Below are positions 1-51,369 of a DNA stretch of 64,000 nt, piece by piece. The notes beneath the pieces were generated by a model. The model worked only from the letters and a program-made list of their open reading frames with translations, did not search any database and was not told the origin of the DNA. Origin of the DNA: a virus. The translations under genes were made by a program, and so were the position numbers. The stretch covers positions 20,284 to 84,283 of IMG/VR virus record IMGVR_UViG_3300020411_003820. One strand, 5' to 3'. How positions within the stretch are numbered: the first letter of the stretch is position 1; the number at the start of each line of letters is the position of its first letter.

Positions 1-880
1 TATTTGGATCTTTTATCATGGTTGAGCCTATGAAGGCTCTGCCGTCATTACCCAAGCATGTTTCCAAATCCTTACTGTCGAAAGATTGGATCGGTGAATC
101 CTCAGTGGAGAGTTTAAGCACTTGGGCAAGCGACTTAGCAAATTGCGTGTTGGCTACCGGGTACATACCGAGCATGCCAATTCTACCACGCAGTAATCTA
201 GTTGATCGTTCGTTATCAAGAATAATATGCGGATGCTTTGTGACGTCATTTGCCAGCGTCAACGCATTACGAGCGATCGTTGGGTTAAGGTTTTCTTGTG
301 CAGTTGGCCATGAAACTATATAAACGACCTTACCACTTGACTGCACAGAGCGCATGTAACGCTCAAAGACAGGATGGAGAGCGGTAACAGAACTACCGGT
401 GCCACCGCCACCGCCAGCAAGGACGAATAACCAATCCACTTTACCGAGTTTGATGCGCAAAGCATCTTCAATAATTGCACCATTTTGACTTAATACCTCT
501 TTTCCATAGTCTACGTTTTTGCCGATTCCATCAGAATCGGGAATAAGGACAACGTGATCCTCTTCGACATTCTTTGGAATGTCTTTACCTGTTGTATTAA
601 CAAGCAGCGTTTTGTTGAAACCAAGCTCAATGAAAGCGTTGGCCATTTTGTTGCCTCCACCGCCAACCCCAACAATACCGATGTTAAGCGAAGAAGGTGC
701 TGTGTTTTCGGGAAGCAGATCTTCATCAGAGTATTCCATCTGGAGACCGAAATCTTCAACCATGCCGAAATCTTCGGCGTCCACTTGTTCGTGGTAGCTA
801 TCCTTTTCCTGCACAAATGCGGGTGGGGGTTCTGCGGGAGGCAGAAAATCAAATTCGTTGTTATCGTTTTCGTCTGACAT
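1..880 (-). CDS. FtsZ/tubulin-like GTPase (C-terminal part cut by window edge)
   Basis: The frame is open from the ATG at 880 to the window edge, giving 293 residues without a stop. An acidic, proline-containing N-terminal extension of about 63 residues precedes the GTPase fold. The tubulin/FtsZ landmarks are visible in order: the T1 loop GVGGGGNKMANAF (residues 71-83), a T3-like NTTGKD (95-100), the phosphate-binding T4 loop AGGGGGTGSS (155-164), a ribose/base-contact-like NERSTRLL (223-230), and a T7-like SFDSKDL (266-272). The last aligns with NLDFADV of FtsZ and keeps both acidic residues. Such proteins polymerise with GTP; phage members are known to position or segregate DNA. The T1 and T7 loops look more like FtsZ/CetZ than eukaryotic tubulin. 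The gene follows 906-1520 after 25 bases, with an AGGA ribosome site. Family assignment is firm; the polymer's role is inference. Confidence 0.88.
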   Translation of the reverse strand, partial: MSDENDNNEFDFLPPAEPPPAFVQEKDSYHEQVDAEDFGMVEDFGLQMEYSDEDLLPENTAPSSLNIGIVGVGGGGNKMANAFIELGFNKTLLVNTTGKDIPKNVEEDHVVLIPDSDGIGKNVDYGKEVLSQNGAIIEDALRIKLGKVDWLFVLAGGGGGTGSSVTALHPVFERYMRSVQSSGKVVYIVSWPTAQENLNPTIARNALTLANDVTKHPHIILDNERSTRLLRGRIGMLGMYPVANTQFAKSLAQVLKLSTEDSPIQSFDSKDLETCLGNDGRAFIGSTMIKDPN

Positions 881-905: not shown

Positions 906-1520
906 TTACTTTATATTGCGCAGCGCATCTTCGAGTTCTTCTCTAATAAACTGTTTAAGTTTCTTTTCGTTAATTGAAGCTAACAACTCATCTTCTTCAG
1001 TACCTTGTTTTAATTGAATTCTTCTTTTAGCTTTTCTTACCATGCGATCGTACTCTTTTTTACCTCCAGTAGTTTGATATGCCCTTTCTCTATCACGCGT
1101 GAGCTGAACTTGCTTGTCGGACAAATCTGCATCTGCTTGTTTTTTCTCGGCATCACGACGCTGTAGACGATCACTTTCTCTACCGGCTGTGTGTTCAACA
1201 CTAAAATCTTCTAATGCGTTAGCAAGATGCTTACGTTGCTTTTGTACTTTACTCTGATAGTTTGGATCGTTTATGCGATCGGCGGTTATCTGCTTTAACT
1301 CGTTAGATACTTTTGGCCAAAATTCGTTGAACCATTTTTCGTTGTCTTCTTCACTCCAAGTTGACATAATTCTGTTTCTTTCTTGACGAGCTTCTTTTTC
1401 GTCTTTAGGAGCAAACGCAAAGTCTATCAACTTAAACAATGTACTAAGATAGCCCTCTTGAAGTGTAGATTTTACTTCTTCTTCAATAATCTGCTTGAGT
1501 TGTGATTGTGTAATTTTCAT
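906..1520 (-). CDS. Charged helical protein with LKQII-type peptide at both ends
   Basis: A 204-residue protein of unknown function. It starts MKITQSQLKQIIEEEV, a peptide shared with the genes at 6566-7111 and, more loosely, 5762-6559. A second copy, INEKKLKQFIREELEDAL, closes the protein at residues 183-200. The middle is rich in Lys, Arg, Glu and Gln (about residues 100-170) and is probably a long helix or coiled coil. No catalytic motif or membrane segment is seen. It lies 11 bases downstream of the nuclease/ATPase fusion and 25 bases upstream of the FtsZ-like gene, so the three are probably co-transcribed from the promoter near 4790. The N-terminal peptide resembles a virion-packaging tag, which would make this an internal head protein; that is inference. 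Confidence 0.75.
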   Translation of the reverse strand: MKITQSQLKQIIEEEVKSTLQEGYLSTLFKLIDFAFAPKDEKEARQERNRIMSTWSEEDNEKWFNEFWPKVSNELKQITADRINDPNYQSKVQKQRKHLANALEDFSVEHTAGRESDRLQRRDAEKKQADADLSDKQVQLTRDRERAYQTTGGKKEYDRMVRKAKRRIQLKQGTEEDELLASINEKKLKQFIREELEDALRNIK

Positions 1521-1531
1521 TTAGTAATCTC

Positions 1532-4500
1532 CTATTGATTTACTCTCGCGTATCCTGCTTTCTTTTCAATTACTATTTGCATGTCAACGCAATCTTTGAG
1601 CGAATCAAGGTGCGAGATCAACAAAACGTTCTTAAAATACACTTTAATTAGTTCCAAGATCCGAATAAAACCCTCCATATTTTCTTCGTCTAAAGCAGTA
1701 CCGGGTTCATCAAGGATGAATAAATCAGATTTAGGCAATGACGACACCGATAGAAGTGCCAAGCGAATAGCCATGGCCGCCATTGTTTTCTCAGCACCTG
1801 ACGCCATCTCAATAGGACGTTCATCATACTCAGGGTGTTTAATAAAAATATCAAACTTATTACCAGATGTTTCAAAGAAAACTTCAAAATCAACGATATT
1901 GGCTAAAACTTTAGCAATTTCACTGTTGATTACTGGAATTTTCTTTTTAATAATATCGTAAGCGATGCCGTTTGAATGCATACACCTCATAAACAAATCA
2001 TATGCAGCAAAGTCTTTTCTTAATTCGCTGTGTTCTGATTGTTGTTCTTTGAGATTTTTGAGTTGTTGTTCATATGATCCAACATGTTTATAAAGATCAA
2101 GCGTTTGTTCTCTATTGTCTTCAATTTGTCTTTTATATTTGGCAATGCCTTTTTCATGTTCAGTTTTTTCCTTTAATAACTTCTCAAGATTCTCGATCGT
2201 TTCTTTGTTACCTTCGTATATTAATTCTTTATTTCTTAATTCAAATACAGAATTATTAAGTCTATCCAAGGCGCCGTTGTTTCTTTCAATAGAAAGCTTG
2301 AGGTCTCTGATATATACTTCTGTTTCTTGTTTCTTACCATTTAATTTTGTATACTTTTCAATATGGTCTCTAACAATAGCCGGCGAAAGGTGGGCCAGTT
2401 TGTCTTCAAATTCGTTAATTTGTCCTTTTATTTCTGGCAACGTTGATACTGCCACATGTGCATCTTTAATAAATTTGCAAGTTTGAAATTTTGTGCCACA
2501 AGGAATGTCATCCAATAATTTTTCCTTTGCAATTGCATTGTCAAACACGACAGTCAAATTAGCCAGCTCTGCTTCAGCTTCTCTAATTTCTTTTTGTTGC
2601 GTTAAAAGGGAATCATAATCTAATTGACCTAAAAGCTTATTAATCTTTATTAGTCGACCCTTTTCTTTATCTAACAAGCTAGCTTCTTCAATGACCTTGC
2701 TAGACAACACATTAATTTGCTTTTGACTTTGCTGTAGTTCTCTCCTGACGTCAAATATATCGATAGCCTCTGTAGGTATTTCAGAAATTGATTTGACTAT
2801 TTCTGCCATCGCTAATTCAGATTGTTCCAAAGAATTATTGTAAGAAATATGAAGCGATTCATGATGCTCAACCGATGTGCGAGCACCATTAAGTTCTTCT
2901 TTTAGTTCTAAAATTTCTTCATCGTAATTTCGACCCTCAAGCTTTTTAAGTATAACTTTGGTGTCTACAGAGTCATCTTTTGACAGCTTGAACTTTTTGT
3001 CAAAAATTTCTAGGTCTAAAAACTTAGCAATAATCTCTTTACGTCGTGTCGAGCCTTCATCAATAAATGCTAGTGCACCGTGTTGCGATGCTAACGAAGA
3101 TACTGAAAAGTCTTCCATTGTTCCAAAATGCTTTCGGATGTTTGCATCGGTGTGGTTTCTGGTAAGTCCATTGAGAGATGTTACCACATCCGTAGCCATA
3201 TCATATACTTCAAAGTTTAAATCGGTTTTTGCTTCTAAAGTTTCTTCGCCCTTAAGTCTCTTAGTATATTTTTGTGCGGTTCTCTCAACAGTATAAGTTT
3301 TATTACCAACAGTAATTGTTAGTTTGCCGCGGCAAGAGTCTTTATTCTGGTTAATAACATTGAGATTCTTGCGCTCATTTTTCGAGGTTGAGTTAAAAAG
3401 AGTCCAAAGCACACCATCCACAATAGAACTCTTGCCGGAAAAGTTTTTACCGAAAATACCGACAATCCCCCCCAATTCATCAAAGTTAACATTATTATTC
3501 TCTCCATAATTAAATAAGTTATCAAATTCAAAATTGACCAATTTCCAGTTTATATTTCTAGATATTTCTTCGTTGTCCTCAATAATTTTGTTGTATTTTC
3601 TATTCAGTTCATAGACTCTCTCAAGCATTTCATCGCTAGTTTCGTAGTCAGTTAGATACTCTTTGATAAACTGTTCTTGTACGTTAATGTCGCGCAGATT
3701 TTCATCGTTAATAGAATTTGTCAAATCTTCAACATTACCACGTTCACCGGATGCACGATTCAAGAACGATATACTTTCAGGCTTAAACCTATGTTTTGCT
3801 ATGTCTACTGCACGCTTCATCACATTTAGTGGCAAGTTGTTGTTGCTAACCAAGCGCAGACGTGCTGACGTAGGGACTTCAATGTTCTTGGGCATGCGAC
3901 CCTTTCTGGTCAACACGATAGTCATGAAAGGCCGAGGATTCTTAAACACAATAGGCTCAATATCCCAATTGTCTTTGTCCTGAATATCCCATATCAATAT
4001 GCCCTTGTCGTTTGTTTCACCATGGTTTTGTTGGATTGTTGAGCCAGCATACCACACGCGTCCTTCTTCATCTAAGAATTGACGGCGATGAATGTCGCCA
4101 AGCATTGAAAAATCAAAATCGTTGAAGATATTAATGTCGTCTTCGCCGTTGGCCATGGTCCAGTTTGTATCAGTCTTGCAGTTAGAGATAGAGCCGTGGT
4201 ACAATGCAATATTAATCTTGCTATCATCCGTTGGTTTCATCCAATTGTCTCTATCAAAAACTGAAAGCACGTTAAGGCAAAACTTATCATCGATATGAGT
4301 TTCGCCAGAGTCTTTTAGTAAGTATAAATCTTGTATGTCAAGCGCTTCTGCAATAGGTGTGAGTGCGTCTTGACGACTGCTATTCTTAAGATTTCCATCG
4401 TGGTTCCCAAGAATAATGTATGTAGGCGCGATGGCCGCTAGATTACGGAAGAACTCAGAACACATCTCAACAAACTCAGGTGATATTTGAGTTTTTGTAT

Positions 4501-4639
4501 GTGCGATATCTCCGCAATGTATAATGTAATCTACCTCTTGTTTTCGTAACTCTTCGTATAATTGGTCGAAAACAATCCGGTATTCGTAGTGATACTTCAA
4601 ATTCTTGATATGAGTATCACTTATATGTGCAAACTTCAC
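1532..4639 (-). CDS. Fused SbcD/gp47 nuclease and SbcC/gp46 ATPase (Mre11-Rad50 type)
   Basis: One 1035-residue frame contains both halves of the Mre11-Rad50 machine that processes DNA ends for recombination. The N-terminal 340 residues are a calcineurin-type phosphoesterase with ISDTH, HCGDIAH, LGNHDGN, YHGS and GDIHRR motifs, which bind two metals. After a short linker comes an SMC-type ATPase: Walker A GKNFSGKSS (about residue 400), coiled coils, a zinc-hook-like C-GTKFQT-C (about 710), a second coiled coil, signature SGAEKTMA (about 946), Walker B LFILDEP (about 980) and H-loop ISHLD. In T4 these functions are two genes, 47 and 46. The hook has six residues between the cysteines instead of the usual CxxC. 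The ATG at 4639 is the only start preceding the metallophosphatase motif. I see no stop or frameshift at the junction. Confidence 0.93.
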   Translation of the reverse strand: MKFAHISDTHIKNLKYHYEYRIVFDQLYEELRKQEVDYIIHCGDIAHTKTQISPEFVEMCSEFFRNLAAIAPTYIILGNHDGNLKNSSRQDALTPIAEALDIQDLYLLKDSGETHIDDKFCLNVLSVFDRDNWMKPTDDSKINIALYHGSISNCKTDTNWTMANGEDDINIFNDFDFSMLGDIHRRQFLDEEGRVWYAGSTIQQNHGETNDKGILIWDIQDKDNWDIEPIVFKNPRPFMTIVLTRKGRMPKNIEVPTSARLRLVSNNNLPLNVMKRAVDIAKHRFKPESISFLNRASGERGNVEDLTNSINDENLRDINVQEQFIKEYLTDYETSDEMLERVYELNRKYNKIIEDNEEISRNINWKLVNFEFDNLFNYGENNNVNFDELGGIVGIFGKNFSGKSSIVDGVLWTLFNSTSKNERKNLNVINQNKDSCRGKLTITVGNKTYTVERTAQKYTKRLKGEETLEAKTDLNFEVYDMATDVVTSLNGLTRNHTDANIRKHFGTMEDFSVSSLASQHGALAFIDEGSTRRKEIIAKFLDLEIFDKKFKLSKDDSVDTKVILKKLEGRNYDEEILELKEELNGARTSVEHHESLHISYNNSLEQSELAMAEIVKSISEIPTEAIDIFDVRRELQQSQKQINVLSSKVIEEASLLDKEKGRLIKINKLLGQLDYDSLLTQQKEIREAEAELANLTVVFDNAIAKEKLLDDIPCGTKFQTCKFIKDAHVAVSTLPEIKGQINEFEDKLAHLSPAIVRDHIEKYTKLNGKKQETEVYIRDLKLSIERNNGALDRLNNSVFELRNKELIYEGNKETIENLEKLLKEKTEHEKGIAKYKRQIEDNREQTLDLYKHVGSYEQQLKNLKEQQSEHSELRKDFAAYDLFMRCMHSNGIAYDIIKKKIPVINSEIAKVLANIVDFEVFFETSGNKFDIFIKHPEYDERPIEMASGAEKTMAAMAIRLALLSVSSLPKSDLFILDEPGTALDEENMEGFIRILELIKVYFKNVLLISHLDSLKDCVDMQIVIEKKAGYARVNQ

Positions 4640-5761: not shown

Positions 5762-6559
5762 TTATTTGAGAGTATTTTTTGTTTCTTGGGCTTTTTTAAA
5801 TGCTGAAAAGTCGGCATTTAATAATAAAATTGGTATTTGTTTACCGCTGGCATCGGCTGTTTGTCCAATCTTTTTAAATTTACCGTAACCAAACGAACCA
5901 AAATCTTGTATTTGTCTGTCCATGATTGAATTTAATTTTTCAGCATCCATCATACCATAATATTTCATCTTACCATCGATTCCGTATTTGCCTGTCGAAA
6001 AATCAGTGTAGGAAGAATCAATATTGTCATATGGAACATAATAAAAAACGCCACCCGTGGCCGGATCTCGAAGAGGCTGCCCATTATCGCCAGTTGCCAT
6101 TACAAGATCTGCTTGGTATTTGCTTACAAAATTATCTGTGTCGCTAACCCGCTTCTTCTCGCCACTGTCAACTCCTAAGTCGGCGGTGCCGCGGTCAAGA
6201 GCACGCTGAACAAGTTTTTGCAACTCTTTATCTTTTAGCGCTTCAACAGCATCTCTAGCGTTTTCGGCATTTGCTAACTCTTGAGCGGCACCTGGTGTAA
6301 CCCCTACATCATTAAGTACCTGTAAATCATTACCAATTTGACTCCCAAAGGCTGCAAGCGCAATAGGAAGAATAATCTTCATGTTGCTGCCAATCGCAGA
6401 CTTGAGAGTATCTAAAACACTTTTTTCTAAAATTAAAATTTGCTCTTCGGACAAATCAAGTTGCATTTCAGTAATAACTGATCTGATTTCTTCTATAACA
6501 ATCTTTTCAGATACTTCTTCTAATATAAGCTGTTTTAATTTTGATTCTGCTATGATCAT
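5762..6559 (-). CDS. Unknown protein with LKQLILEEV N-terminal peptide
   Basis: A 265-residue protein whose start, MIIAESKLKQLILEEV, is the diverged third member of the LKQII peptide group in this window. Residues 12-14 read I-L-E, in register with I-E-E and I-R-E of the other two. An amphipathic helical stretch (to about 55) and a weakly hydrophobic Ala/Ile/Leu segment (about 58-75, MKIILPIALAAFG) follow. The C-terminal half is soluble and globular, with Gly/Tyr/Asp-rich FYYVPYDN and GSFGYGKF. No known domain is recognised. It lies between the lipoprotein gene (11 bases downstream) and 6566-7111 (6 bases upstream), so the three are one operon. It could be an internal virion protein. Confidence 0.7.
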   Translation of the reverse strand: MIIAESKLKQLILEEVSEKIVIEEIRSVITEMQLDLSEEQILILEKSVLDTLKSAIGSNMKIILPIALAAFGSQIGNDLQVLNDVGVTPGAAQELANAENARDAVEALKDKELQKLVQRALDRGTADLGVDSGEKKRVSDTDNFVSKYQADLVMATGDNGQPLRDPATGGVFYYVPYDNIDSSYTDFSTGKYGIDGKMKYYGMMDAEKLNSIMDRQIQDFGSFGYGKFKKIGQTADASGKQIPILLLNADFSAFKKAQETKNTLK

Positions 6560-6565: not shown

Positions 6566-7111
6566 TTACCGTGATACCAATTGAGGTGGTACATTTTTTG
6601 TATTCATCGAAAACTGCAACCGCTGTCCGCTTTGTGTATCAAAGACAAATGTTGTTTCCCCGCTTTTCGCGTCCGTATTTTGATTTTGAAGTCCATATTT
6701 GTTGAATACGTCCATACGTTTAAATTTATCATCGCCAGCGGCTTCAAGTTCTGCAGCTATTTTAGATAAAGAATCCTTGGCACTGTCGACATCTGTAGGT
6801 AAACTTTTGCTAGACTTTTTATCACCCATGTCAAACCTTGGATCATCATCCATATTAAATTTAGAATCGTCAAAGTCCGCGGACATTGAAGACAGCTCTT
6901 TATCAAGAGCGGCCCACTTATCAGCCATGGCAGGATTAGGCGCTAAAACTCCAGCAGCAGTTGTAACCAACATGCCTGCTGAAACCATTTTTTTAACCCA
7001 ATTTGGCATTGCTTCTTGAAGTTGTATTTCTGTAAGCTGTATGTCGCTTGATAAAGCAGCTTCGACCTCTTCTCTGATAATCTGTTTTAATTGTGATTCA
7101 GTAATCTTCAT
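6566..7111 (-). CDS. Unknown protein with MKITESQLKQIIREEV peptide
   Basis: A 181-residue protein with the clearest copy of the shared N-terminal peptide. The peptide is followed by two further L-x-E tripeptides (LTE at 26-28, LQE at 31-33) and a hydrophobic stretch (about 42-62, ending in PAMADKWAA) that resembles a signal or membrane segment placed after the tag. The remainder is acidic (DDSKFNMDDDPRFDMGD) and then mixed, with no recognised domain. A purine-rich GGAGAG ribosome site precedes the ATG at 7111. It is downstream of the primase by 9 bases. The L/I-x-E sites resemble those cut by T4-type prohead proteases, so it may be processed during head maturation; this is inference. Confidence 0.72.
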   Translation of the reverse strand: MKITESQLKQIIREEVEAALSSDIQLTEIQLQEAMPNWVKKMVSAGMLVTTAAGVLAPNPAMADKWAALDKELSSMSADFDDSKFNMDDDPRFDMGDKKSSKSLPTDVDSAKDSLSKIAAELEAAGDDKFKRMDVFNKYGLQNQNTDAKSGETTFVFDTQSGQRLQFSMNTKNVPPQLVSR

Positions 7112-7120: not shown

Positions 7121-8059
7121 CTACACTGCTGACAACAAATCTAGCAATAAATAGTTGTCTCTGTCGATAAAAGATGCATTTCTTTTTCGTTCGTCAAATA
7201 CATCTTTTGGCATGGCGCCTACGTCCTCAAACCCTGAAATATTAATTTTGTATACTTCCACGTCGTAACGCAGTAGCATCTCAATAATCCTACGCTCTTT
7301 GTCAGCAGCATCGGGGTCAAGCGCGACGTAGACAGGGGTGTCGTTTCGTACAATCTCTCGTAATAATTTGGACCCTGACCGTAGGGTTGAACCCAATATA
7401 GGAACAGCATTTCCGGCGACCAATGCATCAAAAACTCCTTCAACAATAGTTAGATCTGAATTCCAGTCAATAAATAGCTCATTAAACACAATGTCCTTGG
7501 ACACTCTCGGGTTTTTATATTTATATGAGTCACCCGAGTAAGACCTTGCAATAAAGTAGCTACAATCGCCATTGTGATTGAATGACGGTATAACAATTCT
7601 ATTGCGATATTCTCCACTAAAACAAAAGCCAATCTTCCATCTCAATATATCTTGTTTGCTAACACCACGTTTCTGTAAATATTTCACTGCATATGTGGCC
7701 GTAGCTGGCATGTCTGTAGCACAAAGACTTATAAATTCATCCGGGAGTTGTACTTTCTCTTCGCTTCGCTCATGCTCGCGGTCCATAAATAAGTCAGCGA
7801 ATCTTTCAAGATCGGGACGATCTGTAACTTGGTCCCATTTTTGTAATTGGATATAGGAACCAAAACGCCTAATAGCACGACGAATGCTACGACCGCGATA
7901 ATCACAAATCCAACACTTAAAAGCATTTTTGGCCAAATTAATAGAGAATTTACGTTTGTGATGACCGCATGCCGGGCACGTGAAAAGTAATTCTTCGCCC
8001 TTGTCTGCGTAGTTCCCAAACGTTTCATGTAATACCTTTTTTGCTTCTTTCTTGTTCAT
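7121..8059 (-). CDS. DNA primase, zinc ribbon plus TOPRIM
   Basis: A 312-residue DnaG-type phage primase that makes RNA primers for lagging-strand synthesis. The N-terminal zinc ribbon has Cys28, Cys31, Cys49 and Cys52 (CPACG and CWICD). A core segment (about 120-200) contains NRIVIPSF, typical of the region before TOPRIM. The TOPRIM catalytic residues are Glu207 in IVEGVFDA and Asp248/Asp250 in ALDPD. Length is short compared with bacterial DnaG because the helicase-binding C-terminal domain is missing, as is usual for T4-like and other phage primases. It is the first gene after a strong promoter and terminator pair (8073-8130) and begins the operon 8059 to 4821. Confidence 0.93.
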   Translation of the reverse strand: MNKKEAKKVLHETFGNYADKGEELLFTCPACGHHKRKFSINLAKNAFKCWICDYRGRSIRRAIRRFGSYIQLQKWDQVTDRPDLERFADLFMDREHERSEEKVQLPDEFISLCATDMPATATYAVKYLQKRGVSKQDILRWKIGFCFSGEYRNRIVIPSFNHNGDCSYFIARSYSGDSYKYKNPRVSKDIVFNELFIDWNSDLTIVEGVFDALVAGNAVPILGSTLRSGSKLLREIVRNDTPVYVALDPDAADKERRIIEMLLRYDVEVYKINISGFEDVGAMPKDVFDERKRNASFIDRDNYLLLDLLSAV

Positions 8060-13500: not shown

Positions 13501-13537
13501 TTATTTCCTCTCTCCTTCATAAATAGTTTAAAAATGT

Positions 13538-16314: not shown

Positions 16315-17988
16315 TTAATACTTCCCACCTTTTGTATACATTGATTTCATGTAGTTATCAGATTTGCTTATTGAGCCTTGTCTAATTCTCATTGAGCTAT
16401 TAGATACTGCTTGAGCTTTTTGAGATTTCATCATTTGCGGTGCACCAATACTGCGAGATACAGAACTGCGTGAGCCGGCTTGAATTTTGAACATGTTAGA
16501 TTTTTGCGTAAGTCCACTAAAACCCTGAGCGGCGCTTTTTTGTAAATTTCCAACGACTGGTGATTTTGAAATTTTCATAGAGCTTCCTCCTGTCATCATA
16601 ACACTACGTTGGGATGCCATTGGTGCACCGCGCAAAGTAAAAGATGACATGCGAGATGCTTGTGGAGCAGCTTTTTTAACTGACATACCTTGGCCGAGCA
16701 TTTTTGTAAATGCACTCTGCGATCCTTGTCCGCGACCGGGCATTTTCAATCCTGGGGCTCCCATTTGGGCGCCCATTCTAAACCCGTCTGGACCCACTTT
16801 AAATCCGCCGGGTGCTGCAGTAAGTTTTGTTTTTGCAGCTATTAGTCTAGTTTGAGGCCCTTGTCCATACTTAAAAAGATCTAGTTTTGACGATGCTGCC
16901 ATGTTAAGAATGGTAGCTGGGGTGCTACTCAAAGCACTAAAAGGATCTATAGCACTTGATCTAAATGCTCTAGTTGGAATTCTTTTTGGGCGACCGAAAA
17001 CACCGTATGCATTAAGTTCTGCAAGTTTTCGAGCTTCTCCAACACTATTAGCTACAATACTAGCAGCAGCATCTGACAAATTAGTCGCAACAATTTCAGA
17101 ATTATTAAGAGGGCGATTTTTAATATGACTAAAGCTTTCCACACTTCTAACACGGGTGGACAACATTTGCTCAGCAAATGTCATAAAAGCGGTGTTAATG
17201 ATTGTCTGATGGCGTCTGGGGTGAATTATGCAACCAAATTGAGATGTTAACATAGTAGCTTCGTTGTTGGAGTATATAACCTCATATTTATCTTTACGAA
17301 TTTCTGTGCCCCCATTAGCTAAACGATCTTTACGATATCTTTCGTATAAACCATTGTAGGCTTTTTGATCAATTTTTGCAGATGATTCTGGAATAGTAAA
17401 TCTTCTAACTTTTTGATCTGGACGTCCAGTAACATCTTTTGGCTCAAGCAACTCTGGTGGCTGGTTCCATTCATCGGGAATAACAACCTCAAACTGTTTC
17501 TCTGGTACATTATCACGGTTGCCCAATTGCGGAGTCTTTGATTTTACCTGGGGATCGCTTTTGACTGCGGTGCCGCGATTGATCGAGGGCGTCGTTCCGG
17601 ACGTCGATGCCCTTTTGGCCGCCTTGGCTTCGGCATCGCCGCCGCTGCTACGGGTAGAAATGGCGCCTTTGGCTGCTTTTGCTGACGCGCCTCCGCCACT
17701 GACTCCTGCTATATCATCATCGGGGTGACATGCTCCTGCGAGGAACGTCGAACCCGGCGGGCAAAAACAACCGCAATGTCCAGCTGGACATTTATAATAT
17801 GTTTTAGCTGGTTCTGATGCACACGGATCTATCGCAGAGGCTAGCGCGTCATCCAGCAAGCTGACGGCGCCGCCGCTGTAGCTGCTTTTTTTAGTAGCAG
17901 TAGAACTACTAGAACTACTACTGCGGCCCGTTCCAAAAGACGTAGAGCCTCCAAAACCACCAGCAGCCATACCAGCACCAAACCCCAT
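16315..17988 (-). CDS. Low-complexity virion protein with Cys-rich segment
   Basis: A 557-residue protein with three parts. Residues 1-45 are Gly- and Ser-rich (GRSSSSSSSTATKKSSYSGG). Residues about 55-160 contain a Cys-rich patch (YKCPAGHCGCFCPPGSTFL, then GACHPDD) and Ala/Ser/Gly-rich linker. Residues about 165-345 are a folded-looking region (VIPDEWNQPPELLEP, IIHPRRHQTIINTAFMTFAEQ). The rest is basic, Met/Gly/Ser-rich and repetitive (SKSPVVGNLQKSAAQGF, SMRIRQGSIS). The DNA for the linker near 17581-17640 is about 40 G+C of 60, far above the surrounding sequence. It overlaps the upstream gene by one base. Function unknown; probably a flexible virion part. Confidence 0.7.
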   Translation of the reverse strand: MGFGAGMAAGGFGGSTSFGTGRSSSSSSSTATKKSSYSGGAVSLLDDALASAIDPCASEPAKTYYKCPAGHCGCFCPPGSTFLAGACHPDDDIAGVSGGGASAKAAKGAISTRSSGGDAEAKAAKRASTSGTTPSINRGTAVKSDPQVKSKTPQLGNRDNVPEKQFEVVIPDEWNQPPELLEPKDVTGRPDQKVRRFTIPESSAKIDQKAYNGLYERYRKDRLANGGTEIRKDKYEVIYSNNEATMLTSQFGCIIHPRRHQTIINTAFMTFAEQMLSTRVRSVESFSHIKNRPLNNSEIVATNLSDAAASIVANSVGEARKLAELNAYGVFGRPKRIPTRAFRSSAIDPFSALSSTPATILNMAASSKLDLFKYGQGPQTRLIAAKTKLTAAPGGFKVGPDGFRMGAQMGAPGLKMPGRGQGSQSAFTKMLGQGMSVKKAAPQASRMSSFTLRGAPMASQRSVMMTGGSSMKISKSPVVGNLQKSAAQGFSGLTQKSNMFKIQAGSRSSVSRSIGAPQMMKSQKAQAVSNSSMRIRQGSISKSDNYMKSMYTKGGKY

Positions 17989-19043
17989 TAGAAACCTCCT
18001 AAAGTAAATGTAAATGGCTTAAAACTCATTGAACTCAAAGCATCCGATTCTGTTCTAGAAACTCCTGTTTTTTTCGTGGCAGTTTTAGTTCCAGAACTAG
18101 AAGAACTAGAGCCTCCGGAATAAGTTGATGTTATTCCTGTTTTTGCGCCGGCGCCGAGACTTGCAACAGGATCGCCCTTACTTACAGTTTTTGAGCTACT
18201 ACCGGGCGATTTTGATGTTTTTGTTCCGCCATGTGTAGAACCAGCTGAACCCTCCGAGGGATCCCATATTTGTTTGCCACCGGGGCCCATCAATCGCGGA
18301 TCATCACTGGAAACCCGTTCGGCATCTTCAAAGCCATCATTTTCCAATTTGTCTCTTACAACTGGATTTTCTCTTGGTGGTGTTTTTCTTGGGGCCGGCG
18401 GCGTATAAGTTTTAGCCGGTGGCGCGTCTTTTAAGCCGGCTATAATTAATTCTTCTTCGGATAATATGGCGGATTTGGTGCCGGGTTTGTTCATCATTAC
18501 CACCTCAAAAGGCATACAGTATTCAACACCATCAGAAGTTGTTATTAATATGTTTTTATTTAAATCACATTCATAATTTACTGTAAATTGATCTGCCCCG
18601 TTGCTTGTGTTGCTAACCATAATAGCAACATCGCCAGAAGGTATATACGAAATTTGCCTATCGTCCCTATCAGACGATAGTAGATCGTCACTATTTTCTC
18701 TCAATAAAACTATGCCATTCTTACTTGCTAACGCTTGCTTATATGCCTCTTCGAGTCCATACAATTTCTGTTTAGTTACATCACAAAATAACAATTTTTG
18801 ACCGCTATCAAAACCACATGCAAAATCAGTTTGATCCCTACCTTGTTTTGAATCACTAATTAATTCATACATTGGAGGTTCATCATCCAAAACTACTCGT
18901 TTGTTTGGTGGATCTGCTGGTGGATCTTTTTTGGTATTATTTATTAAAGACTGCCAGCCTTGCATTTCAGCTGCATCTTCTTTGGTAATTTTTGCTAAAT
19001 CACCTGATTTAGCTTCGTTAATTGCTGATTGTTTAGCTGGCAT
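17988..19043 (-). CDS. Virion protein with disordered Ser/Gly-rich C-terminus
   Basis: A 351-residue protein of unknown function. The first 210 residues look folded and mostly hydrophilic (DEPPMYELISDSKQGRDQTDF, VNYECDLNKNILITTSDGVEY). From about 210 it becomes Pro-, Gly- and Ser-rich, ending with SGGSSSSSSGTKTATKKTG and a short tail SMSFKPFTFTLGGF. That linker resembles the start of the next protein (SSSSSSSTATKK). Stop and start of the two genes overlap by one base. The structural role is inferred from position and composition only. Confidence 0.68.
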   Translation of the reverse strand: MPAKQSAINEAKSGDLAKITKEDAAEMQGWQSLINNTKKDPPADPPNKRVVLDDEPPMYELISDSKQGRDQTDFACGFDSGQKLLFCDVTKQKLYGLEEAYKQALASKNGIVLLRENSDDLLSSDRDDRQISYIPSGDVAIMVSNTSNGADQFTVNYECDLNKNILITTSDGVEYCMPFEVVMMNKPGTKSAILSEEELIIAGLKDAPPAKTYTPPAPRKTPPRENPVVRDKLENDGFEDAERVSSDDPRLMGPGGKQIWDPSEGSAGSTHGGTKTSKSPGSSSKTVSKGDPVASLGAGAKTGITSTYSGGSSSSSSGTKTATKKTGVSRTESDALSSMSFKPFTFTLGGF

Positions 19044-19068
19044 TGCAAAATCTCACTATACTATAAAA

Positions 19069-19803
19069 CTAAATTTTTATTACTTCATCTTCATCAAAAT
19101 CAAAATTTAAATTTGGATTGGAAAAGTCCTTAAACTCAAGATTAGAATTATCAACTGTTGGATTGGCAACAAACTGTTGAGTAATTTTAAAAACCGGCAA
19201 CATCGCGTCAGATTTTAAGGTGAATTGAAGCTCATTAAGTTCTTGCACAATGTCAATTAAATTTGATGTTTCTGCTGTTTTTAATTTTTGTTGTCTTAAA
19301 TAAACTTCTTTAAGCTCTTCTTGTGGCTGGGGCTCAAACAATGTATTTTTACTAAAATTTTGAAACATTACTGTGGCCGGGATCATCGGAGCTTTTGAAA
19401 ATTGTTTTTTGACGCTTTTGATATCGGTGATGTTGGGATTAGGAATAACAGTGTTATCGGTTTCAGTCATTTTTAAAGAATAACCAGTTTTTAATTTAAT
19501 TTTTGTTCCGATATCATGTTCTTTGGAAACGGTATCTTTACTAATTTCAGTCACCACACCAGCACCGATAGAAGACATAATCGTCCTAGACATCTCTTTC
19601 ATACTCATATTTTTATCGGCTTGTGCAATTTGTCCAGATTTATTAAGACTATTAATTACTTTACCGATTTTGTTCATACGACCATCAGGTTCAACTGAGC
19701 AAAGTTTATCGCCTACGCGAGCGCGCTTTTTTAGTATTGGTACGGGACTTTTACCAATCCTTTTAACTTCCGCTAATTGCAGTGGTGTTATTTGTCTAGG
19801 CAT
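19069..19803 (-). CDS. Unknown protein of the virion block
   Basis: A 244-residue protein with no recognised domain. The N-terminus is basic (MPRQITPLQLAEVKRIGKSP); the middle contains a Lys/Thr-rich region (GTKIKLKTGYSLKMTET) and a probable helical stretch (QPQEELKEVYLRQQKLKTAETSNLIDIVQELNE is the charged section at about 155-190). The C-terminus is acidic (NLNFDFDEDEVIKI). It lies between two structural genes with gaps of 25 and 63 bases; the 63-base gap upstream is AT-rich with an AAAGGAA ribosome site and no convincing promoter. It may be a connector or chaperone for the neighbouring large proteins; that is a guess. Confidence 0.65.
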   Translation of the reverse strand: MPRQITPLQLAEVKRIGKSPVPILKKRARVGDKLCSVEPDGRMNKIGKVINSLNKSGQIAQADKNMSMKEMSRTIMSSIGAGVVTEISKDTVSKEHDIGTKIKLKTGYSLKMTETDNTVIPNPNITDIKSVKKQFSKAPMIPATVMFQNFSKNTLFEPQPQEELKEVYLRQQKLKTAETSNLIDIVQELNELQFTLKSDAMLPVFKITQQFVANPTVDNSNLEFKDFSNPNLNFDFDEDEVIKI

Positions 19804-19866
19804 TTTTATTGTTCCTTTGAAGTAAATATAATAAACTTATATTTTTTGTAATTTTTAGCGTATTTC

Positions 19867-22800
19867 CTACCCTTTATACCGCCCTGATGCTTTAATTACT
19901 GATTTTAACGCTGAAGTACTTGTTGATTCCAGTTGCCAAGTTCCATTGCTCATCATACTGTAGCAGCGGCACTTTTTGCTATTCTTCTTGAAGAGCTTGC
20001 CGCAGCAACAATCTTTTTTGCGTCTGCGCATGGCTCGATCTGATGGTGTTCCATATCTAGATTTATTATATTTCTCATACTTATTGCCATTTGTATAAAC
20101 CCAATAATATCCAGCAGGATCAGAGCCGGCAGGGTTCATGTATCGCACGTACCTGCAATCTAACTTGTTTTTATTATGGTACTCTTTATTCTTCTTTATG
20201 TACCCCGCTTCGTAGCTGGCTTGGTCATCTGAAATTGAATCCGAAGATGATGCCGCGGAGTCGTTCGCTGAGCTTTTGGCTGCTTTTTGCTCGGTGGCGC
20301 TGGGTTTGTCGCTGCCGCCCACATCAATCACTATAAGATCATTGTTGTAGGTCGTCCCAGTCGACCCGAATGATTGTTCCTTTTCTAGTGTGTGTGTCGG
20401 TTGACACTTGCCGTTTTCGTCTTCTGCTGTTAAAGATGGGCATACACAAATGCCATCTTTAACTATTTTACCGCTACACTTTTTAGCGCCCGGAAGGGCC
20501 ATCTGCATAAATGGGTTGCCACACTGGAAAGCGGTGGTTGGGCAACCGCCTTCAAACGCAGGATCAATTTCTTTTTCCATGGGGGGCAATGAAGCACGGA
20601 ATATGGCGTCATTATATTCTTGCTCGGCATCGCGATAGCGTGTTCTTTCATCGTTAATAAGCGACAAAAATTCGTTTCTATCATCAACCACAAAAGAGCT
20701 TCTAACATATGACTCATGTGTCGCTCTATAATTTCTCTGATAAATAACAGGATTGAAAATACCATTTTTACCATTACCGTCCAATTCGCTTGAAGTTTTT
20801 TGTAAATACCTACCAATTTTTGAGTTGGGTCCATAAAAATCATCAAATGTTTCTTGTAAAATATTCCAAAAAGCTTCAACTTGATCAAGATCTCCAGTAT
20901 CTGGGGATATTCTTTGCAACAAATCTCTTGCTTCAAGCAATTGATCTGAAGTATTTCCATTAAATCTGTCTGTCAAAAATTCCATGTGTCTAACATACAT
21001 GCACACAGAGTAAACCCATGGAGCGCGGGTTGGATCATCGGCATATCTTTGATTTATGGCAGTTTGGAAAAAGTCGTTAAAACGATTATCTATGTTATTA
21101 TAGCTACAAAATTGTCTTGCCAAGTCCACATACTCTTCTTTAAATATCATCATATTGTCATAGAAATTTTGTATTATTGCCAAGACACATTGTCTGGTAC
21201 CATCAGCAATATCAATCTCCACATCATATTTATCATAAACTTTATCTTCATACTTATCCAACGTTGCTTGTTGATCAATATTTTGAAACTCAAAAGCCAT
21301 AAGCCTATATCGATTGTTAATATAGTTTGCGTTTATATCTTCACCATAAATATAAGATAAATCAACACCAACTTTATCATTGAGAAGATTTTCGTTTACT
21401 ACATGAAGTGATCTCTGAGCTAGGTAAGAATTAATAACGATTGAGGGTGTTGAAGATTTTTTCGACTTATCATTACGGTTGAGTGCGGCGGAGGCTCTTC
21501 CAATATTTCCCGGTCCGCTACCTTTACCAAAAAGACCTATTCCTTTTCCGCCCCCACCAGAACTAAGTTTGTTTCCAGCGCTGAATAAAGTTGTCCCTCT
21601 TAGGCGATCGCTTGGTTTTGAAAAAGTCTCAGGGGGATTTTTTTGTGCAATTTCAATTTTTTCAGGAAATTCTTGATGAGGGGCGCCATTTTCATAAGTT
21701 GTACCATGTCTATAGATTTCGCCATGAGCATTTGGATGCGCGCCGCCGGGATGGTATTCGTTTGTTCCAGTCCGTTTTGGGTCAGTCCAACTCAGTGGCG
21801 TCACAAATGTCATTATTGGATGTTTGTGAGTTTGGTTTAATTTTGGTGATGGATCGTACTTATGTAGCCTTACTTGTAAAGGTTGATAGTAAGCTTGCAC
21901 AAAAGGCATTCCAAAAAAATCAATAATCCTATCAACATCAAATATATTTGCTACATACGAATTTTTTCTTATAGCTGTGTCATAATCAAACAGAAAATAA
22001 CCAAAAGTAACATTATACTCTTCCATTGCAAAATAATTATCGTTTAATAAACCTTGATATTCTGGATCATCTAGTGACCAAACCTTACCATTTGGCAACA
22101 TCATAAGTAGTAAATCGTCATCATCATAAGATGTAAATTCATCAGCACCTAATCCATCTATATAGCTTTCAAATCTGGTGTCTGCGGCCACATCATAATC
22201 AGCAAACGATACTCTACTTGATGGTTGATTGGTAGTAACTATTTTACGGTCTAAGAAAAAATTCTTTAGTAAATCAGAACCTTTTGACATTTGTTGTGCG
22301 ACAACTTTAGGATCTGGTAAATCATAAAGATTTTCTTTTTGTCTTCGATCAATTATTTTAGAGTTTGCTATCAAATTTTTGGCAACTTGTGGTTGTCGTT
22401 CTATAACAGCATTTGCGCGTGTTAGCAATGTTCCTAAATCTTCATAAAGCTGACCGGTGAATGTGCCTGTACTTCTTTCTGGCATAATACGGCGTGCTTT
22501 TTGTATTTCTGGCAAAATAGTAATAGAATTACTTGTAGCCATGGCAAACTTAATCGAGTTAATAGATTCCATCAAGGGGCCTGGTCGGGGAGATGCGGCA
22601 TTCTCTGCGAGTGCTTCTGGCTGATATGAGTCCAAAACTGCATTAAATTTTTGGATGATTTCAGGTCTTAAGTCAGGAACAGATTTATGGTGGGTGCCAT
22701 TAATACTTTGCATAGGAACATCGTTATATAACTCGTTATTAATATCAAAAAATTTAGTTTGTACTTGATTAGGAACAGTAAACGTAGGACTCTGGAAGTT

Positions 22801-24711: not shown

Positions 24712-27700
24712 TTACTTCTTACCGCCTTGATTGCCGCCGCCTTGGTTTGAACCTCCTGACTTGTTAAAGCTGTCACCGAATAAGCCAGTTGAAAAACTTG
24801 GCATAGAAAATTTAACTCCTGTAGGTTGTTTAATTGGATCCTTGGGTTCAGGATTTGTGGATATATCTTCTCCAGATTCGTTTAAATTCAAACGTTCTAG
24901 AGCATCATTGACGGCGATTTGCGGTGTTATTCCCACAGAAATTTGTTTAGCTATTAATTTTGGATCTGGTAATTCTTCGTTGTCTTTTTCGTAAGGTTTA
25001 GATTGTTTTTCATCGATTTCTTCCATAATAAGGTTTGTTGTTTTAACAACCTTGTCATCATATAAGACTTCAATCTCAACTTTTACACCTTCGACAATTG
25101 AAAGATAATCGTATGGCCAGTTATACTGTAGTTCATAGGTGTTTTCTCTAATAACACCATTTCCATCTGTATCGTCTAAAACGTTTTCAGAAAAATCTAG
25201 ATTATATTGCAAACTTTTACTAGCGATATCTTCTAATGTGTTGGCTGTCTTTTGTTGGGCGCCCACCTGTGTTGCAACGTGCGAGAAATAATCACCAGTA
25301 GCTTTTTGTTTAACTTTGAAAAACATCCATTGTACATCTTTATCTAAAAGTTCTTGTGCATCTAGCAACTCAGTGTTGTTTAGTTCATGAGCAATAGAAG
25401 ACTCTTGAAAACTTACCTTTTTGTAATTTCGTGGCGCTATGTTTTGCCAAATATACGACAAATCATCTTTATCAAGCTTATAGTGAAAATCAAAAATGTA
25501 CATGGCAATTGGCGGTGCAGCTGGGTTTCTTAAGAAATCAAATTGTGGAGGTAAAATGTATTTCTTCATTTTTCTCACCAATCTTCTAATTGACTCACCA
25601 GCAACATCTAGAGACTGCCCAGTATCAGTTTGAGAATTTGCCGCTAGAGCCGCAGCTACTCGGAATGGCTCAATTCCAAAAAATTCTTTTCTAGTTCTAT
25701 TGCTTTGAACGTTAGCTTGAGAAGCGTTTCCAACTAAAACATTTCTATATGGAATTCCAACGACAGCTTCGCGAATAACTTTGTATCTTGCTATTTCACC
25801 GAGTCTTACTGGTGTCTTTTTAAATTGGAAAACGTCCGCAAGTGATTTCATATCAGAATGTATATTAGCGCCGTTAGCATCAACATCATTGCCGTTGTAT
25901 AATGAGCTTGTTTGACGGACCATATAATGGTATTTCAGCCAGTTTTTCGGAATATCAGACATTTCCATAAAAATGCCGCGGTTTTTGTCAGGCTCTAAAT
26001 ACCCAAATTGATGCCACATACCGTGAGGCACAGAAGCGCTGGCGAAGAGAGGCACCGATCCTTCACTGAGTGCGCCTATGTGAGATGCGGGTCTGTACCT
26101 AGAGTTAAAGTTAAGCATTGGTGTTTCAAATTTTGGCTTAATGACCCATCTTGTTGCTTTAGTTTCGTTGCGCTTCGCATTAGGGTTTCCAAACTGATCT
26201 GTTTCCAAGAAACTTTCTTTTCGAATTCCAAAAACATTCAAACTAGCAGACACTTGCATTGCACTAGCATTAACGTTGCGACCATCATAGATGCACTGTT
26301 CCCTGTGAGAACTACTGATATATGCGGGGGTACCGGTGTGGCCGTGTCCATCTTTACTGATTACAGGTCCGGGATCAACTCGCCAACATTGATGTTCTAC
26401 TTCTTCTAAAACTTCTTCTAACGTATATTGTGTTTTGTTTGGCCTGAACACCAAATCCATCCAAGCCTCACCGTGATAATATGGAGGCGTATAAGCCCAG
26501 TTGTATCCTTCAAGCGAATCTTTGATTCCGTACATGGAAGCTGAGGCAGCGCGGTGCGCATTTGTAAGCACTCTACCGGACACTGGGGGTCCAAATGCGG
26601 ACGGTCTACTGTACATAGTGTAAGATTCTCTTGTGATATCTCCATTTTGAGCAACGTTGTTAGCACCAAGAGAACCTGTAAATTTTTGAGCTATGTATGG
26701 GTGTATGGGATCTTGTGGTAATTCGTAGCCGGCGCCGGATACAAACGCTTGGATACGCGTATCGAAAAAGCGACCTCCAAGCGGGGAATAGGCGCCATTA
26801 GGATATGTACTTCCCCATGCATCGCGATCGAAAGAATAGTAACGCCGTGTAGCGCCAGCAATAGGCGTGGTGCCTTGTTCGTTGTCACCTGTGTCGCCGG
26901 CGCCACCGGTGGTATTAATATCTTGAATTGATTGGAAGGTACCGAGAGATCTTTTAAGCCTCAAGCGAGCGCCATATACTGTTCCTGATTTAAATGTAAT
27001 AATATTGTCATCAACTCTACCAGAAACTAATTCCGTGTAGGTTCTACCTCTTAAGAAAAAGTTAGCTGTTTCTCCAAAAAAGTTTCTTGCCATTAATGTG
27101 TAAAAGCTGTCGTTATTATTAGATACTAGTGAGGCACTGAAATCAACAGTTGCAGATGGGTGAGGTTCTAAATCGGCAAAATCTTCTCCAAGCATTGAGC
27201 CTTCTGGGGCCAAAATTGTTTCAAAAGGTAACCGAGTGTCCCAGAATGGTGTGCCGGATTCCCATGGCGCATTACTCTGTGCTGGTTCAAGCACTGATGC
27301 TGTACAGTGAATCATATATGTGTGCAGGTCAACTGCGGACTCCATTCCAGCATATTCATCAAAATTGCTAATTCTTGCGTAGTCCTTGGCGTTTCCTTTA
27401 TATAATGAGCCAAAAATAGCAGGCCAGTCAACAGCCATACCAGATTTAATTGAATTAAATAAAATTCCAGGCATAAATAAAGGTTGATATACGGGACGCG
27501 CATTACCAAACAGTGCGCCGGCTGGTAGCCAGTCTGTACCGTCGTGTTTACCTTTTGTTCTTTTTGTTTGTATTGAATTGTTGTAGGAGCTACTAAATTG
27601 TCTAACCAAGTCAATTGTTCTTTGTGCTGGATAAAAACCCTTGTATGGATTCCACTTCTTCACCGCTTTCACAGAAATTTTTATTTCTTTAGCGGTTAAG

Positions 27701-30700
27701 TTAGTTTTAAGACCTTGCTGCCTAAAAAATTGCATTTTTGAAGAATCCATATATTGTTCAAAGAATGCGCCTGTTACACTAGTAATGCCAGTGCCCGGAA
27801 GCGTAAATGTATCAAATTTGTCATTATCATCAATATCAAATTTATTATATTCAACAATATTATCACTTATTCTAAATTCAGGAATTACGACATAATCTTT
27901 AGCTATGTATCTTAAATCTAGTCTAAAATCTTCGTAATTATCATACCACGGCTTAGATGGTTTTGAAATGAATGTGAAAGCTTTACCTGATTTTCTTAAA
28001 ATACCAGCTTGTTCGCCAGCTTCCCACAAGGCTTCACCGCCGTTAACAAACACACTTTGCGTCAGCAACATTCCAAGATTTGCGGCGCCTCTGTATAAAG
28101 AAGTACCGATGCCAGTGACACCTAATGTTCCAGTAGTTTTAATTTCCATACCTGTTGGGTTTCCTACTGATAGAAACGGACTCAGCATGTGTTTTCTAGC
28201 ATACAGGGCACCGACGTTAAGAAAAGAAAACTGTCCGTCGTACTTAGAGCCTCTTCCGCCGCGGGTAGCATCGTGAGCAAAGTGAGCATGTCCCTGACAG
28301 TTTTGAAGCTCACCCGCTGCATGTGATATAGCTATCTGCACGTTTGGATATACTGCAGAAGCCACAGTACTGTCGGCACTGACACCACCAGCATGGTTGA
28401 AAGGTCCAGCACGAAGATAGTTTCTATTAACACCAGCACCCTTAAACGGGGATGGTCTTTGTGACGCTGTGTGAAGCCCAACTACTGTATTTGAACCTAC
28501 AATAGAACCAGAACGAACTAAAAAGTTTGCCGGTGCATCGAGTGGCCAACAACTTCGGGATAAATAGTCTGTCCGACCGCTCGCCAAAAATTGTGCTGCT
28601 GCGTTGCGTCCGACAGACGGATCAGTAGCATTTCCTAATTCGTTTCTTAAGCGGCGTTCATCTCGCCACATTTGCATATCATAGCCGGTTCTTTTTTGTG
28701 AATGACTAACAAATTCATTTCTTGCTGACGGGTATACTTTTTCAGTATATGACATCCAGTTTAATCCAAAATCTCTGTGTTTGCTTGTCATTAGTAATAT
28801 GTGATCAAGTGGAGTAACTATTTCTTTTGGGTTAATCTTTGTAAGGTTATTTAAGCCAATACTATTGAACATAATTTTTTCATTAATATCAGTAACCTTA
28901 AGGGTAATTGATGGGTTTGCAGATTGCGGATTTGCACTGTTTCCGCATTCTTCTAGAGGATCATAAGGAGTATAATTAACCAATGTGGGGCGAGCGCGCA
29001 TTGAAACAGGCTTCAAAGCATATTTTTCAATTTGCCCTTTTGCTCTATTATAAACACTAATCGTACTAGAAGATCTTTCCATTCTTAAAACAGGATGTTG
29101 TCTATTTTTTCGTGCCATTGCAAATGTGCTGTATCCATATGGTCCATTTCTTTTAAGCATCAGTGTATTGAAAAGATAACCTTGCAATTGGCCATCTGCG
29201 GCATTTGCTTCCCCGGGGAATGAGGCTGAAACACCGCCTCGCACATACGACCAGAAGCCTCCATAGCCCTCATCCGGCGGCTCAAAAAACCTGACATTTC
29301 GGTATTGATCACCTGGCGCGGTGGTGCGGTCGATGGTTCTGAAGACCGGAGTTCCCATTGATGCAGATTTGACTAGCTCTCCGGGGTTCCCTTCCGGTTT
29401 TGGCACTGAGTGCACTGCTGTGGCCCATCCTAAAGTGTTTACCATGCTAGCACTCTGCTCAATTGGTTCGTAAATAATTGTATTTAAGCCAGCAAAATCT
29501 TGACCTTTAAAATCGTCCGAAAAAGCGTTGGAGCTATATTTTATAGCTCCTAAAAGTGCAAAATCGGGACGGCGAAACAGGCTGGTATTGGTATCTCTTG
29601 TATAGCCAAATTCAGATTCACTCAAAAATCCAAAATATGGCTCATAAACTGTAACACTTTCAGTAGTATTAGCATACATCCCTTGTTGTGGTCCAAATAT
29701 TGGCATATAGCCGCTAAAACGCACATTTCGAGGATCTTGATCCTCAATTGCGCCGGTTATCCATGCGTACTGTCGATCATTTCTAGGTATCATGTGCTGG
29801 ACAAAAAAGTTGTCATTTTCGGCACGTGGTTCGTATACGTAGCGCACTGACGCTGACTGACCAAGCACTAGCGGAGGACAGCCGGTTTTAGGTGTCGGGA
29901 ATACTCCCGCGTTCAAAGAATTTTGTGTTTGACCCACTGGGGTTGTTAGCGCAATACCTAGGTATTGATTTTGATTAACGCTTACTGGAAAAAGATGATT
30001 TTCATCTGCAATTACGTTGAAAATAGCATTTGAAGCCGATGCGAATGAAGTCGTTCGACTGGAGGCTACTTTGTCAGTATTAGCAGTTTGCTGGTTTTGG
30101 GACGTCGAAGGGCGTGAGGCTTCGCCAAGTTTGTACCATGCGAACAGATTAGCAGTATTATCAGCATAAGCAGTAGATGATGTAATATCGCAAGGTATGC
30201 CGGTATTATATAATTCAGTAACCTCAGTAGAATTTAGTGCTGTTGTCCAAATTGATATTTGATCCATAGCACCTGAGTATCCAAAAGATGCCAAATTATT
30301 GCCACCCTTCGTTGGGTCTCTACCAAACGCAAAACTAGCGGTACCTTGGCGTACCATATTTCCGCCAAGTCCCAATATATCAGTACCTACTTGCGAATTT
30401 TCAACTTTTCTATCCCAGTAGGCTGCAGGAGATGTGTCTTCTTCGACTGGTTGCGCAACACCATTAAAATAAATAGAAGGTGCTGCAGGTCCGGTATAGG
30501 GATAGGAAGAAGAAACAGGAACAGATACAACAAGATGAATCCATTCCCCCTCATTCAAAGCTTTCACCTGATCCGTGGGGTTTTGATTTGCAGTATTAAC
30601 TTTCCATACTGCGCGAGTGGGTGAACCGGCGCTGTAGGTAACATTCGTTCGAGTGGAAATTTGAACACTAAGACTAGCACTAACTTTTGATATTTCAATA

Positions 30701-51151: not shown

Positions 51152-51369
51152 TATTTAACCATTTTCAATAAATCTTCTTCTGTAATTGGTGCATCGTTAG
51201 AAACCCTCACAGTAGGTGGGTTTGCGACAACCAAACCTTCTTCACCCTCAACAAGTTCAAAACCTTTTAAAATTGGCACAATGTCCAATTCATTAAGAAG
51301 TGACTCTTGTAGGGCCATCATAACAGCTCCCAAAGCTTGGTTTGAAAGTTTAAGTGTAGGTGTATTCAT
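51151..51369 (-). CDS. Small conserved-looking phage protein
   Basis: A 72-residue protein. It starts MNTPTLKLSNQALGAVMMAL and ends NDAPITEEDLLKMVK, with a helical start and an acidic helical end. The ribosome site GGAGGATAATTAA spans the stop of the dehydrogenase gene, whose TAA abuts the ATG with no gap. I recognise no family. Its fixed place between glycan genes and the sigma-factor cassette suggests a small regulator or structural accessory. Confidence 0.65.
   Translation of the reverse strand: MNTPTLKLSNQALGAVMMALQESLLNELDIVPILKGFELVEGEEGLVVANPPTVRVSNDAPITEEDLLKMVK

What the first reader, a model, noticed from the sequence alone, without database searches (positions are those of the whole stretch)
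1..880. FtsZ/tubulin-like GTPase in a T4-type phage
Seen: T1, T4 and T7 loops of the tubulin/FtsZ superfamily with intact acidic T7 residues, after a 60-residue acidic N-terminal extension. Known: phage tubulins (PhuZ, TubZ) are best studied in nucleus-forming jumbo phages and plasmid-like phages. Inference: the T4-type genes here place it in another lineage, and the FtsZ-like T1 loop suggests a host FtsZ origin or a mimic that poisons division.
Basis: partly seen in the sequence, partly recalled or inferred. Interest (0 to 1): 0.8.

Follow-up and report, generated by a model that had tools for sequence, protein, structure and literature searches.

The report
Phage tubulin without a phage nucleus
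An abundant, uncultured group of T4-like phages carries its own tubulin, the cytoskeletal protein that builds filaments; it is the most conserved protein shared by the three genomes compared, yet these phages lack the shell protein of the "phage nucleus" with which phage tubulins are usually linked.

Summary
The full 379-aa gene (contig 20024-21163, minus strand) encodes a complete tubulin/FtsZ fold: AlphaFold pLDDT 82, T4 GGGTG signature and both T7 aspartates invariant, C-terminal domain present. It is a coherent new family of phage tubulins, about 62-99% identical across 136 distinct sequences in hand. It is about 15-30% identical to everything else, including two other little-known phage FtsZ-like groups and Bacillus phage G gp138. 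It is not FtsZ, PhuZ or TubZ by the tests run, and a tree rejects grouping it with bacterial FtsZ, so host capture or mimicry is not supported. The carriers are about 190-kb T4-type phages without chimallin or an integrase gene. The tubulin is the most conserved protein in every genome pair compared. It sits in a gene block headed by a putative late promoter or, in a sister clade, between the major capsid and neck/sheath genes. Its most conserved stretch is a disordered acidic N-terminal tail; it has no C-terminal tail. All ten large relatives also encode a probable GTPase-dead second tubulin. Best reading: a late GTP-driven filament that organises virion assembly in a phage with no nucleus. 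Function is inferred, not shown.

The parts
1..880 (-). Phage tubulin/FtsZ-like GTPase (N-terminal 293 of 379 residues; the last 86 codons and stop lie before the window, contig 20024-20283)
692..880 (-). Acidic, proline-rich N-terminal tail (residues 1-63), predicted disordered; residues 38-63 (FGMVEDFGLQMEYSDEDLLPENTAPS) are the most conserved stretch of the protein
   Evidence: pLDDT <50; mean commonest-residue frequency 0.993 over 77 sequences
389..415 (-). T4 loop GGGGGTGSS (residues 156-164), tubulin signature motif
   Evidence: 116 of 116 sequences longer than 300 aa
68..85 (-). T7 loop SFDSKD (residues 266-271) with the two catalytic aspartates D268 and D271
   Evidence: invariant in 32 sequences from phage families and FtsZ; 113 of 116
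906..1520 (-). 204-aa gene with MKITQSQLKQIIEEE leader, immediately upstream in the same block
1532..4639 (-). Fused SbcD-SbcC (T4 gp47-gp46) recombination nuclease, one 1035-aa ORF, conserved neighbour in the main clade
7148..7155 (-). ACTATTTA, putative late-promoter motif at the head of the block that includes gp46/47 and the tubulin
   Evidence: over-represented in near-complete relatives, not in the window alone

Best explanation
It is a catalytically intact (by sequence) phage tubulin of a new family. Made late, together with head and tail proteins, it most likely assembles into GTP-driven filaments. These filaments would position or carry capsids, or the replicated and packaging DNA, during virion assembly: a PhuZ-like job done without a phage nucleus. 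The conserved acidic N-terminal tail would be the docking site for cargo or a partner, taking the place of the C-terminal tails of FtsZ and tubulin. Shown by computation: fold, invariant nucleotide-binding and T7 residues, strong purifying selection, position in late-type or structural gene blocks, absence of chimallin. Inferred: polymerisation, timing, cargo.
For: Full fold at pLDDT 82, pTM 0.80 with C-terminal domain; best structural matches CetZ, FtsZ, TubZ at E 1e-17 to 4.5e-20. D149, GGTG, P192, E196, N223, D268 and D271 are invariant across phage families and FtsZ. It is the most conserved ortholog in all three genome pairs: 94.5/87.7/88.5% against at most 79.9/81.9/79.5% for the next. 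Synonymous sites in G003/G006 and G000/G006 are as diverged as in other genes (35%), so selection rather than recent transfer explains it. Main clade: directly after gp46/47 in a block headed by ACTATTTA in three genomes. Sister clade: between MCP and neck/sheath genes, with the motif 0.3-0.9 kb upstream in all six loci examined. 12 of 13 TerL loci with enough flank carry it. No ChmA and no tyrosine integrase in six relatives of about 190 kb.
Against: No experiment: polymerisation, expression time and cargo are unknown. One close relative (L476; TerL 96% identical to G006) lacks the gene at its usual place and elsewhere on its 45-kb contig, so it is not strictly essential unless it has moved. 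The late-promoter motif is inferred from sequence and is not in excess within the 64-kb window itself. The block also holds gp46/47, a replication/recombination gene in T4.
Confidence: 0.5

Rival explanations
1. It targets the host division machinery: it co-assembles with or caps host FtsZ, or rebuilds a ring, to block or redirect division during infection.
For: FtsZ-like T1/T4 loops and full fold; phage proteins that bind FtsZ are known (T7 Gp0.4, studied in PMC13423816).
Against: About 15-20% identity to FtsZ; tree and AU test place it away from bacterial FtsZ; intact T7 aspartates and GTPase motifs rather than a capping mutant; no C-terminal FtsA/ZipA-binding peptide (ends at the last strand); late-type rather than early gene placement.
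Confidence: 0.15
2. It is part of the virion or of the head-assembly/packaging apparatus: a GTPase packaged in or built onto the capsid or neck.
For: Sister clade encodes it between MCP and neck genes; distant family members L176/L245 also lie on contigs with MCP-like and protease-like genes; extreme conservation like a structural core protein.
Against: Catalytic residues invariant, which a structural subunit need not keep; missing in one close relative; its own N-terminus lacks the leaders seen in neighbouring genes.
Confidence: 0.13
3. A TubZ-like DNA-segregation filament for a plasmid-like or pseudolysogenic state.
For: TubZ is among the close structural matches (TMq 0.67-0.69); pseudolysogeny has been proposed for tubulin-bearing jumbo phages (PMC7824862).
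Against: No recognisable DNA-binding TubR-like neighbour; no tyrosine integrase; T4-type late operon context.
Confidence: 0.1
4. Pseudogene, chance similarity or another P-loop/Rossmann GTPase.
For: Low identity to known tubulins; weak T1-only matches to dehydrogenases in the PDB search.
Against: Significant Pfam/NCBIfam hits, full tubulin fold, conserved in at least 151 contigs.
Confidence: 0.01

Closest known systems
PhuZ (tubulin of nucleus-forming phages, phiKZ gp39)
   Same: Phage-encoded tubulin fold with active-site aspartates; proposed spatial role in virion assembly
   Different: Only E 0.07 to the PhuZ family; no chimallin in the carriers; N-terminal rather than C-terminal tail; PhuZ is dispensable and absent from a third of its phage family (PMC10299810), this protein is the most conserved of its clade
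FtsZ (bacterial/archaeal cell division)
   Same: Full domain layout, T1, T4, T7 loops; TMt up to 0.81
   Different: 50 bits against cut-off 295; outside the FtsZ clade; no C-terminal linker and peptide; T7 Asn replaced by Ser
CetZ (archaeal; 3zid)
   Same: Best structural match, E 4.5e-20, 22% identity; full-length sequence match E 1.5e-9
   Different: Too distant to file as a member; CetZ not in the tree for lack of sequences
TubZ/RepX plasmid and phage partition tubulins
   Same: Fold, TMq 0.67-0.69
   Different: No TubR-like neighbour found, lytic-looking T4-type context
Bacillus phage G gp138 and uncultured phage FtsZ-like proteins (phrog_17961, unknown function; BFVD A0A6J5RW92)
   Same: Nearest phage relatives; group with this family apart from cellular FtsZ (100/99); phage G annotated only as putative FtsZ-like
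   Different: About 25% identity; other phage lineages; none with the conserved acidic tail of this family

Membership tests
Tubulin/FtsZ superfamily | GTPase domain with T4 signature GGGTG | tested here: met
   PF00091 over cut-off; 116/116
Tubulin/FtsZ superfamily | T7 loop acidic residues and C-terminal activation domain | tested here: met
   D268/D271 invariant; domain 281-377 modelled at pLDDT about 90
Tubulin/FtsZ superfamily | GTP-dependent polymerisation | not testable with these tools
   needs protein
FtsZ (equivalog) | TIGR00065 score over 295.2 bits | tested here: not met
   50.3 bits, on the truncated 293 aa
FtsZ (equivalog) | Falls in the FtsZ clade | tested here: not met
   FtsZ clade 100/99 excludes it; AU p 8e-7
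FtsZ (equivalog) | C-terminal linker and conserved peptide | tested here: not met
   7-10 residues after the PGL[IV]AI motif of the last strand in all members checked
PhuZ | Match to phrog_4733 | tested here: not met
   E 0.07; 0.0023 for one relative; phiKZ PhuZ itself 4.6e-118
PhuZ | Carried by chimallin-encoding phages | tested here: not met
   phrog_4795 absent in six relatives of 187-196 kb, positive in phiKZ
PhuZ | Tree position with PhuZ | tested here: inconclusive
   PhuZ branch length 5.98, unplaceable
TubZ | Adjacent TubR adaptor and centromere | tested here: inconclusive
   No HTH-type Pfam hit in the neighbours scanned; centromere repeats not searched
CetZ | Clade with CetZ | not tested
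   no CetZ sequences fetched

The most novel reading that the evidence does not exclude
These T4-type phages run a two-component tubulin system: an active tubulin with an N-terminal docking tail, plus a GTPase-dead tubulin-like partner encoded beside a PolA-like polymerase gene, present in all ten large relatives searched. Together they would form the first nucleus-independent phage cytoskeleton for virion assembly.
Probability: 0.22. Interest if true: 0.9.

Novelty: new variant of a known kind. Interest (0 to 1): 0.72.

Why it matters
Phage tubulins are understood almost entirely through PhuZ and the phage nucleus (and TubZ partition). Here a tubulin with intact active-site residues is the most conserved shared protein of an abundant T4-type phage group that lacks the nucleus protein and an integrase gene. 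That makes it directly testable whether phage cytoskeletons serve virion assembly on their own. The distant phage families found alongside suggest phage tubulins are an old, diverse group rather than repeated captures of host FtsZ.

Tried and rejected
First AlphaFold job with 12 close relatives: pLDDT 41.5, unusable; solved by adding distant phage tubulins and FtsZ. Host from the only genome hit, a Flavobacteriaceae MAG contig: rejected as probably misbinned, because the clade uses Shine-Dalgarno motifs (54-60% of starts, 11-13% in shuffles) while the nearest cultured relative, a Flavobacterium phage, does not (2.5%). Searching for the C-terminal half alone in the PDB: nothing. Tubulin in the nearest cultured phages by TerL (immuto, Mel-JY01, LR756508, SRB7757): none. 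Recent spread as the reason for high identity: excluded for G003/G006 and G000/G006 by saturated synonymous sites, but G000/G003 do show an excess (66% against about 26-56%), suggesting some exchange of this gene. Literature: no paper describing this family found in the held library; one relevant title (PMC12625630) is not held.

Full report
Observation. The window starts inside a minus-strand gene. The window is bases 20284-84283 of an 84,283-bp IMG/VR contig; fetching the missing side gives a 379-aa protein at contig 20024-21163. It passes the Pfam Tubulin cut-off and matches FtsZ structures over residues 66-288 and CetZ 3zid over 75-375.

Structure. With only close relatives AlphaFold failed. 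With 32 sequences, including distant phage tubulins and FtsZ, it gave pLDDT 82.3 and pTM 0.80: 1-63 disordered, 67-377 a full tubulin fold with both domains. Foldseek puts CetZ first (4.5e-20), then FtsZ and TubZ. Among viral models two uncultured-phage 'FtsZ' or 'cell division' proteins come first and a named PhuZ follows at 5.7e-12. FtsZ sequences were in the input alignment, so the model is not blind to the family; the sequence-only hits stand independently.

Residues. D149, G159, G160, T161, G162, P192, E196, N223, D268 and D271 are invariant across 32 sequences from several phage families and cellular-type FtsZ. In the family the T4 motif is in 116 of 116 and the T7 motif in 113 of 116 sequences longer than 300 aa. 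The protein ends 7-10 residues after the PGL[IV]AI motif of the last strand, so there is no C-terminal tail; the tail is N-terminal. Residues 38-63 have a mean commonest-residue frequency of 0.993 over 77 sequences, higher than any part of the core, while four-fold sites there are saturated (30-36%, on only 10-12 sites per pair). A disordered but nearly invariant acidic segment is best read as a binding motif (inference).

Distribution. At least 151 viral contigs carry close relatives; 136 distinct sequences are in hand, about 62-99% identical to the window's protein. TerL relatives exceed 560 contigs. Of 13 TerL loci with 7 kb or more of upstream DNA, 12 carry the tubulin 3.0-6.4 kb upstream. 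The exception, L476, is close to G006 (TerL 96%) and simply lacks the gene. Ten larger viral records (127-196 kb) each have exactly one PF00091 match. No cultured phage in INPHARED has it; only Bacillus phage G gp138 matches weakly.

Conservation. Against two near-complete relatives (195 and 191 kb), the tubulin is the most conserved ortholog in every pair: 94.5, 87.7 and 88.5%, next best 79.9, 81.9 and 79.5%. Four-fold sites are 35% identical in the G000/G006 and G003/G006 comparisons, like other genes, so this is purifying selection; G000/G003 (66%) hints at gene exchange.

Gene context. In the main clade the gene follows a fused gp47-gp46 gene, in the same direction as lysis-like small genes, TerL and portal. 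In a sister clade (62-64% identity) it lies between the major capsid protein and the neck and sheath genes. An octamer ACTATTTA is over-represented on the coding strand of the relatives (24 against 5, 31 against 3 expected; 2 on the other strand), often 15-35 nt before structural genes: a putative late promoter. It heads the gp46/47-tubulin block in all three genomes (window 7148-7155) and lies 0.3-0.9 kb upstream of the tubulin in the sister clade. In the window alone it is not in excess. Late expression is therefore an inference, not a measurement.

Lineage and host. TerL, portal, protease, MCP and sheath match T4-type PHROGs. The nearest cultured TerL is from a Flavobacterium phage, 46.6%, which has no tubulin. 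No chimallin and no tyrosine integrase. The host is unknown; Shine-Dalgarno use and TTGACA-type promoters argue against Bacteroidota.

Origin. Without the unplaceable PhuZ, cellular-type FtsZ and the phage families separate at 100/99, and the family with bacterial FtsZ as one clade is rejected (AU p 8e-7). Long branches limit this, and CetZ, TubZ and eukaryotic-type tubulins are not in the tree.

Second tubulin-like protein. Ten of ten large relatives encode a protein of about 280-288 aa, next to a PolA-like gene where inspected, with a T1-like loop but no GGGTG and no T7 aspartates. Profile comparison with the tubulin alignment gives 90% and E 1.4e-6 over 166 columns through helix H7; four control profiles give 8% or less. 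Against a four-sequence FtsZ profile alone it gave only 4.6%. It was not found in the window's contig, which is partial.

Verdict. Real, a new family of a known kind (phage tubulins), unusual in its carrier, conservation and tail arrangement. Function as an assembly filament is likely but unproven (0.5).

Noticed in passing
L162:861-1724 (G006), G003 162051-162893; L415-L424: Probable GTPase-dead second tubulin-like protein in all ten large relatives, beside a PolA-like gene where inspected; no Pfam or PHROG match.
   Followed up: partly
window 7148-7155, 13520-13527, 28561-28568, 40384-40391 (minus); many sites in L143-L162: ACTATTTA, strand-biased and often 15-35 nt upstream of structural genes: putative late promoter motif of this phage group, unlike T4's TATAAATA.
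   Followed up: partly
window 1532-4639: gp47 (SbcD) and gp46 (SbcC) fused in one 1035-aa ORF, conserved in the clade; separate genes in T4.
   Followed up: no
window 906-1520, 5762-6559, 6566-7111 and contig 17289-19910: Many otherwise unrelated small proteins share N-terminal leaders MKITxxQLKQIIKEE or MKLLxENWRKFxxE; they recall T4 capsid-targeting leaders cut by the head protease.
   Followed up: partly
L163 (PAAD01000063.1): A contig of this phage clade is binned in a Flavobacteriaceae MAG; probably a binning error.
   Followed up: yes
G003 ORF 199, G006 ORF 010: DnaE/PHP-type DNA polymerase III alpha (1143 aa, by eye) plus a small PolA-like protein in a T4-type genome.
   Followed up: no
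window 24712-37050: 4112-aa protein with two laminin-G-like (ConA lectin) stretches, encoded among the tail genes.
   Followed up: no
window 49878-63831: Large block of sugar-nucleotide and glycan-modification genes, including a GDP-mannose 4,6-dehydratase-like gene.
   Followed up: no
L218, L262, L189/L245/L176: Further uncharacterised phage tubulin groups (24-30% identity) in other phage types; L262 lies next to a lysozyme-like gene.
   Followed up: partly
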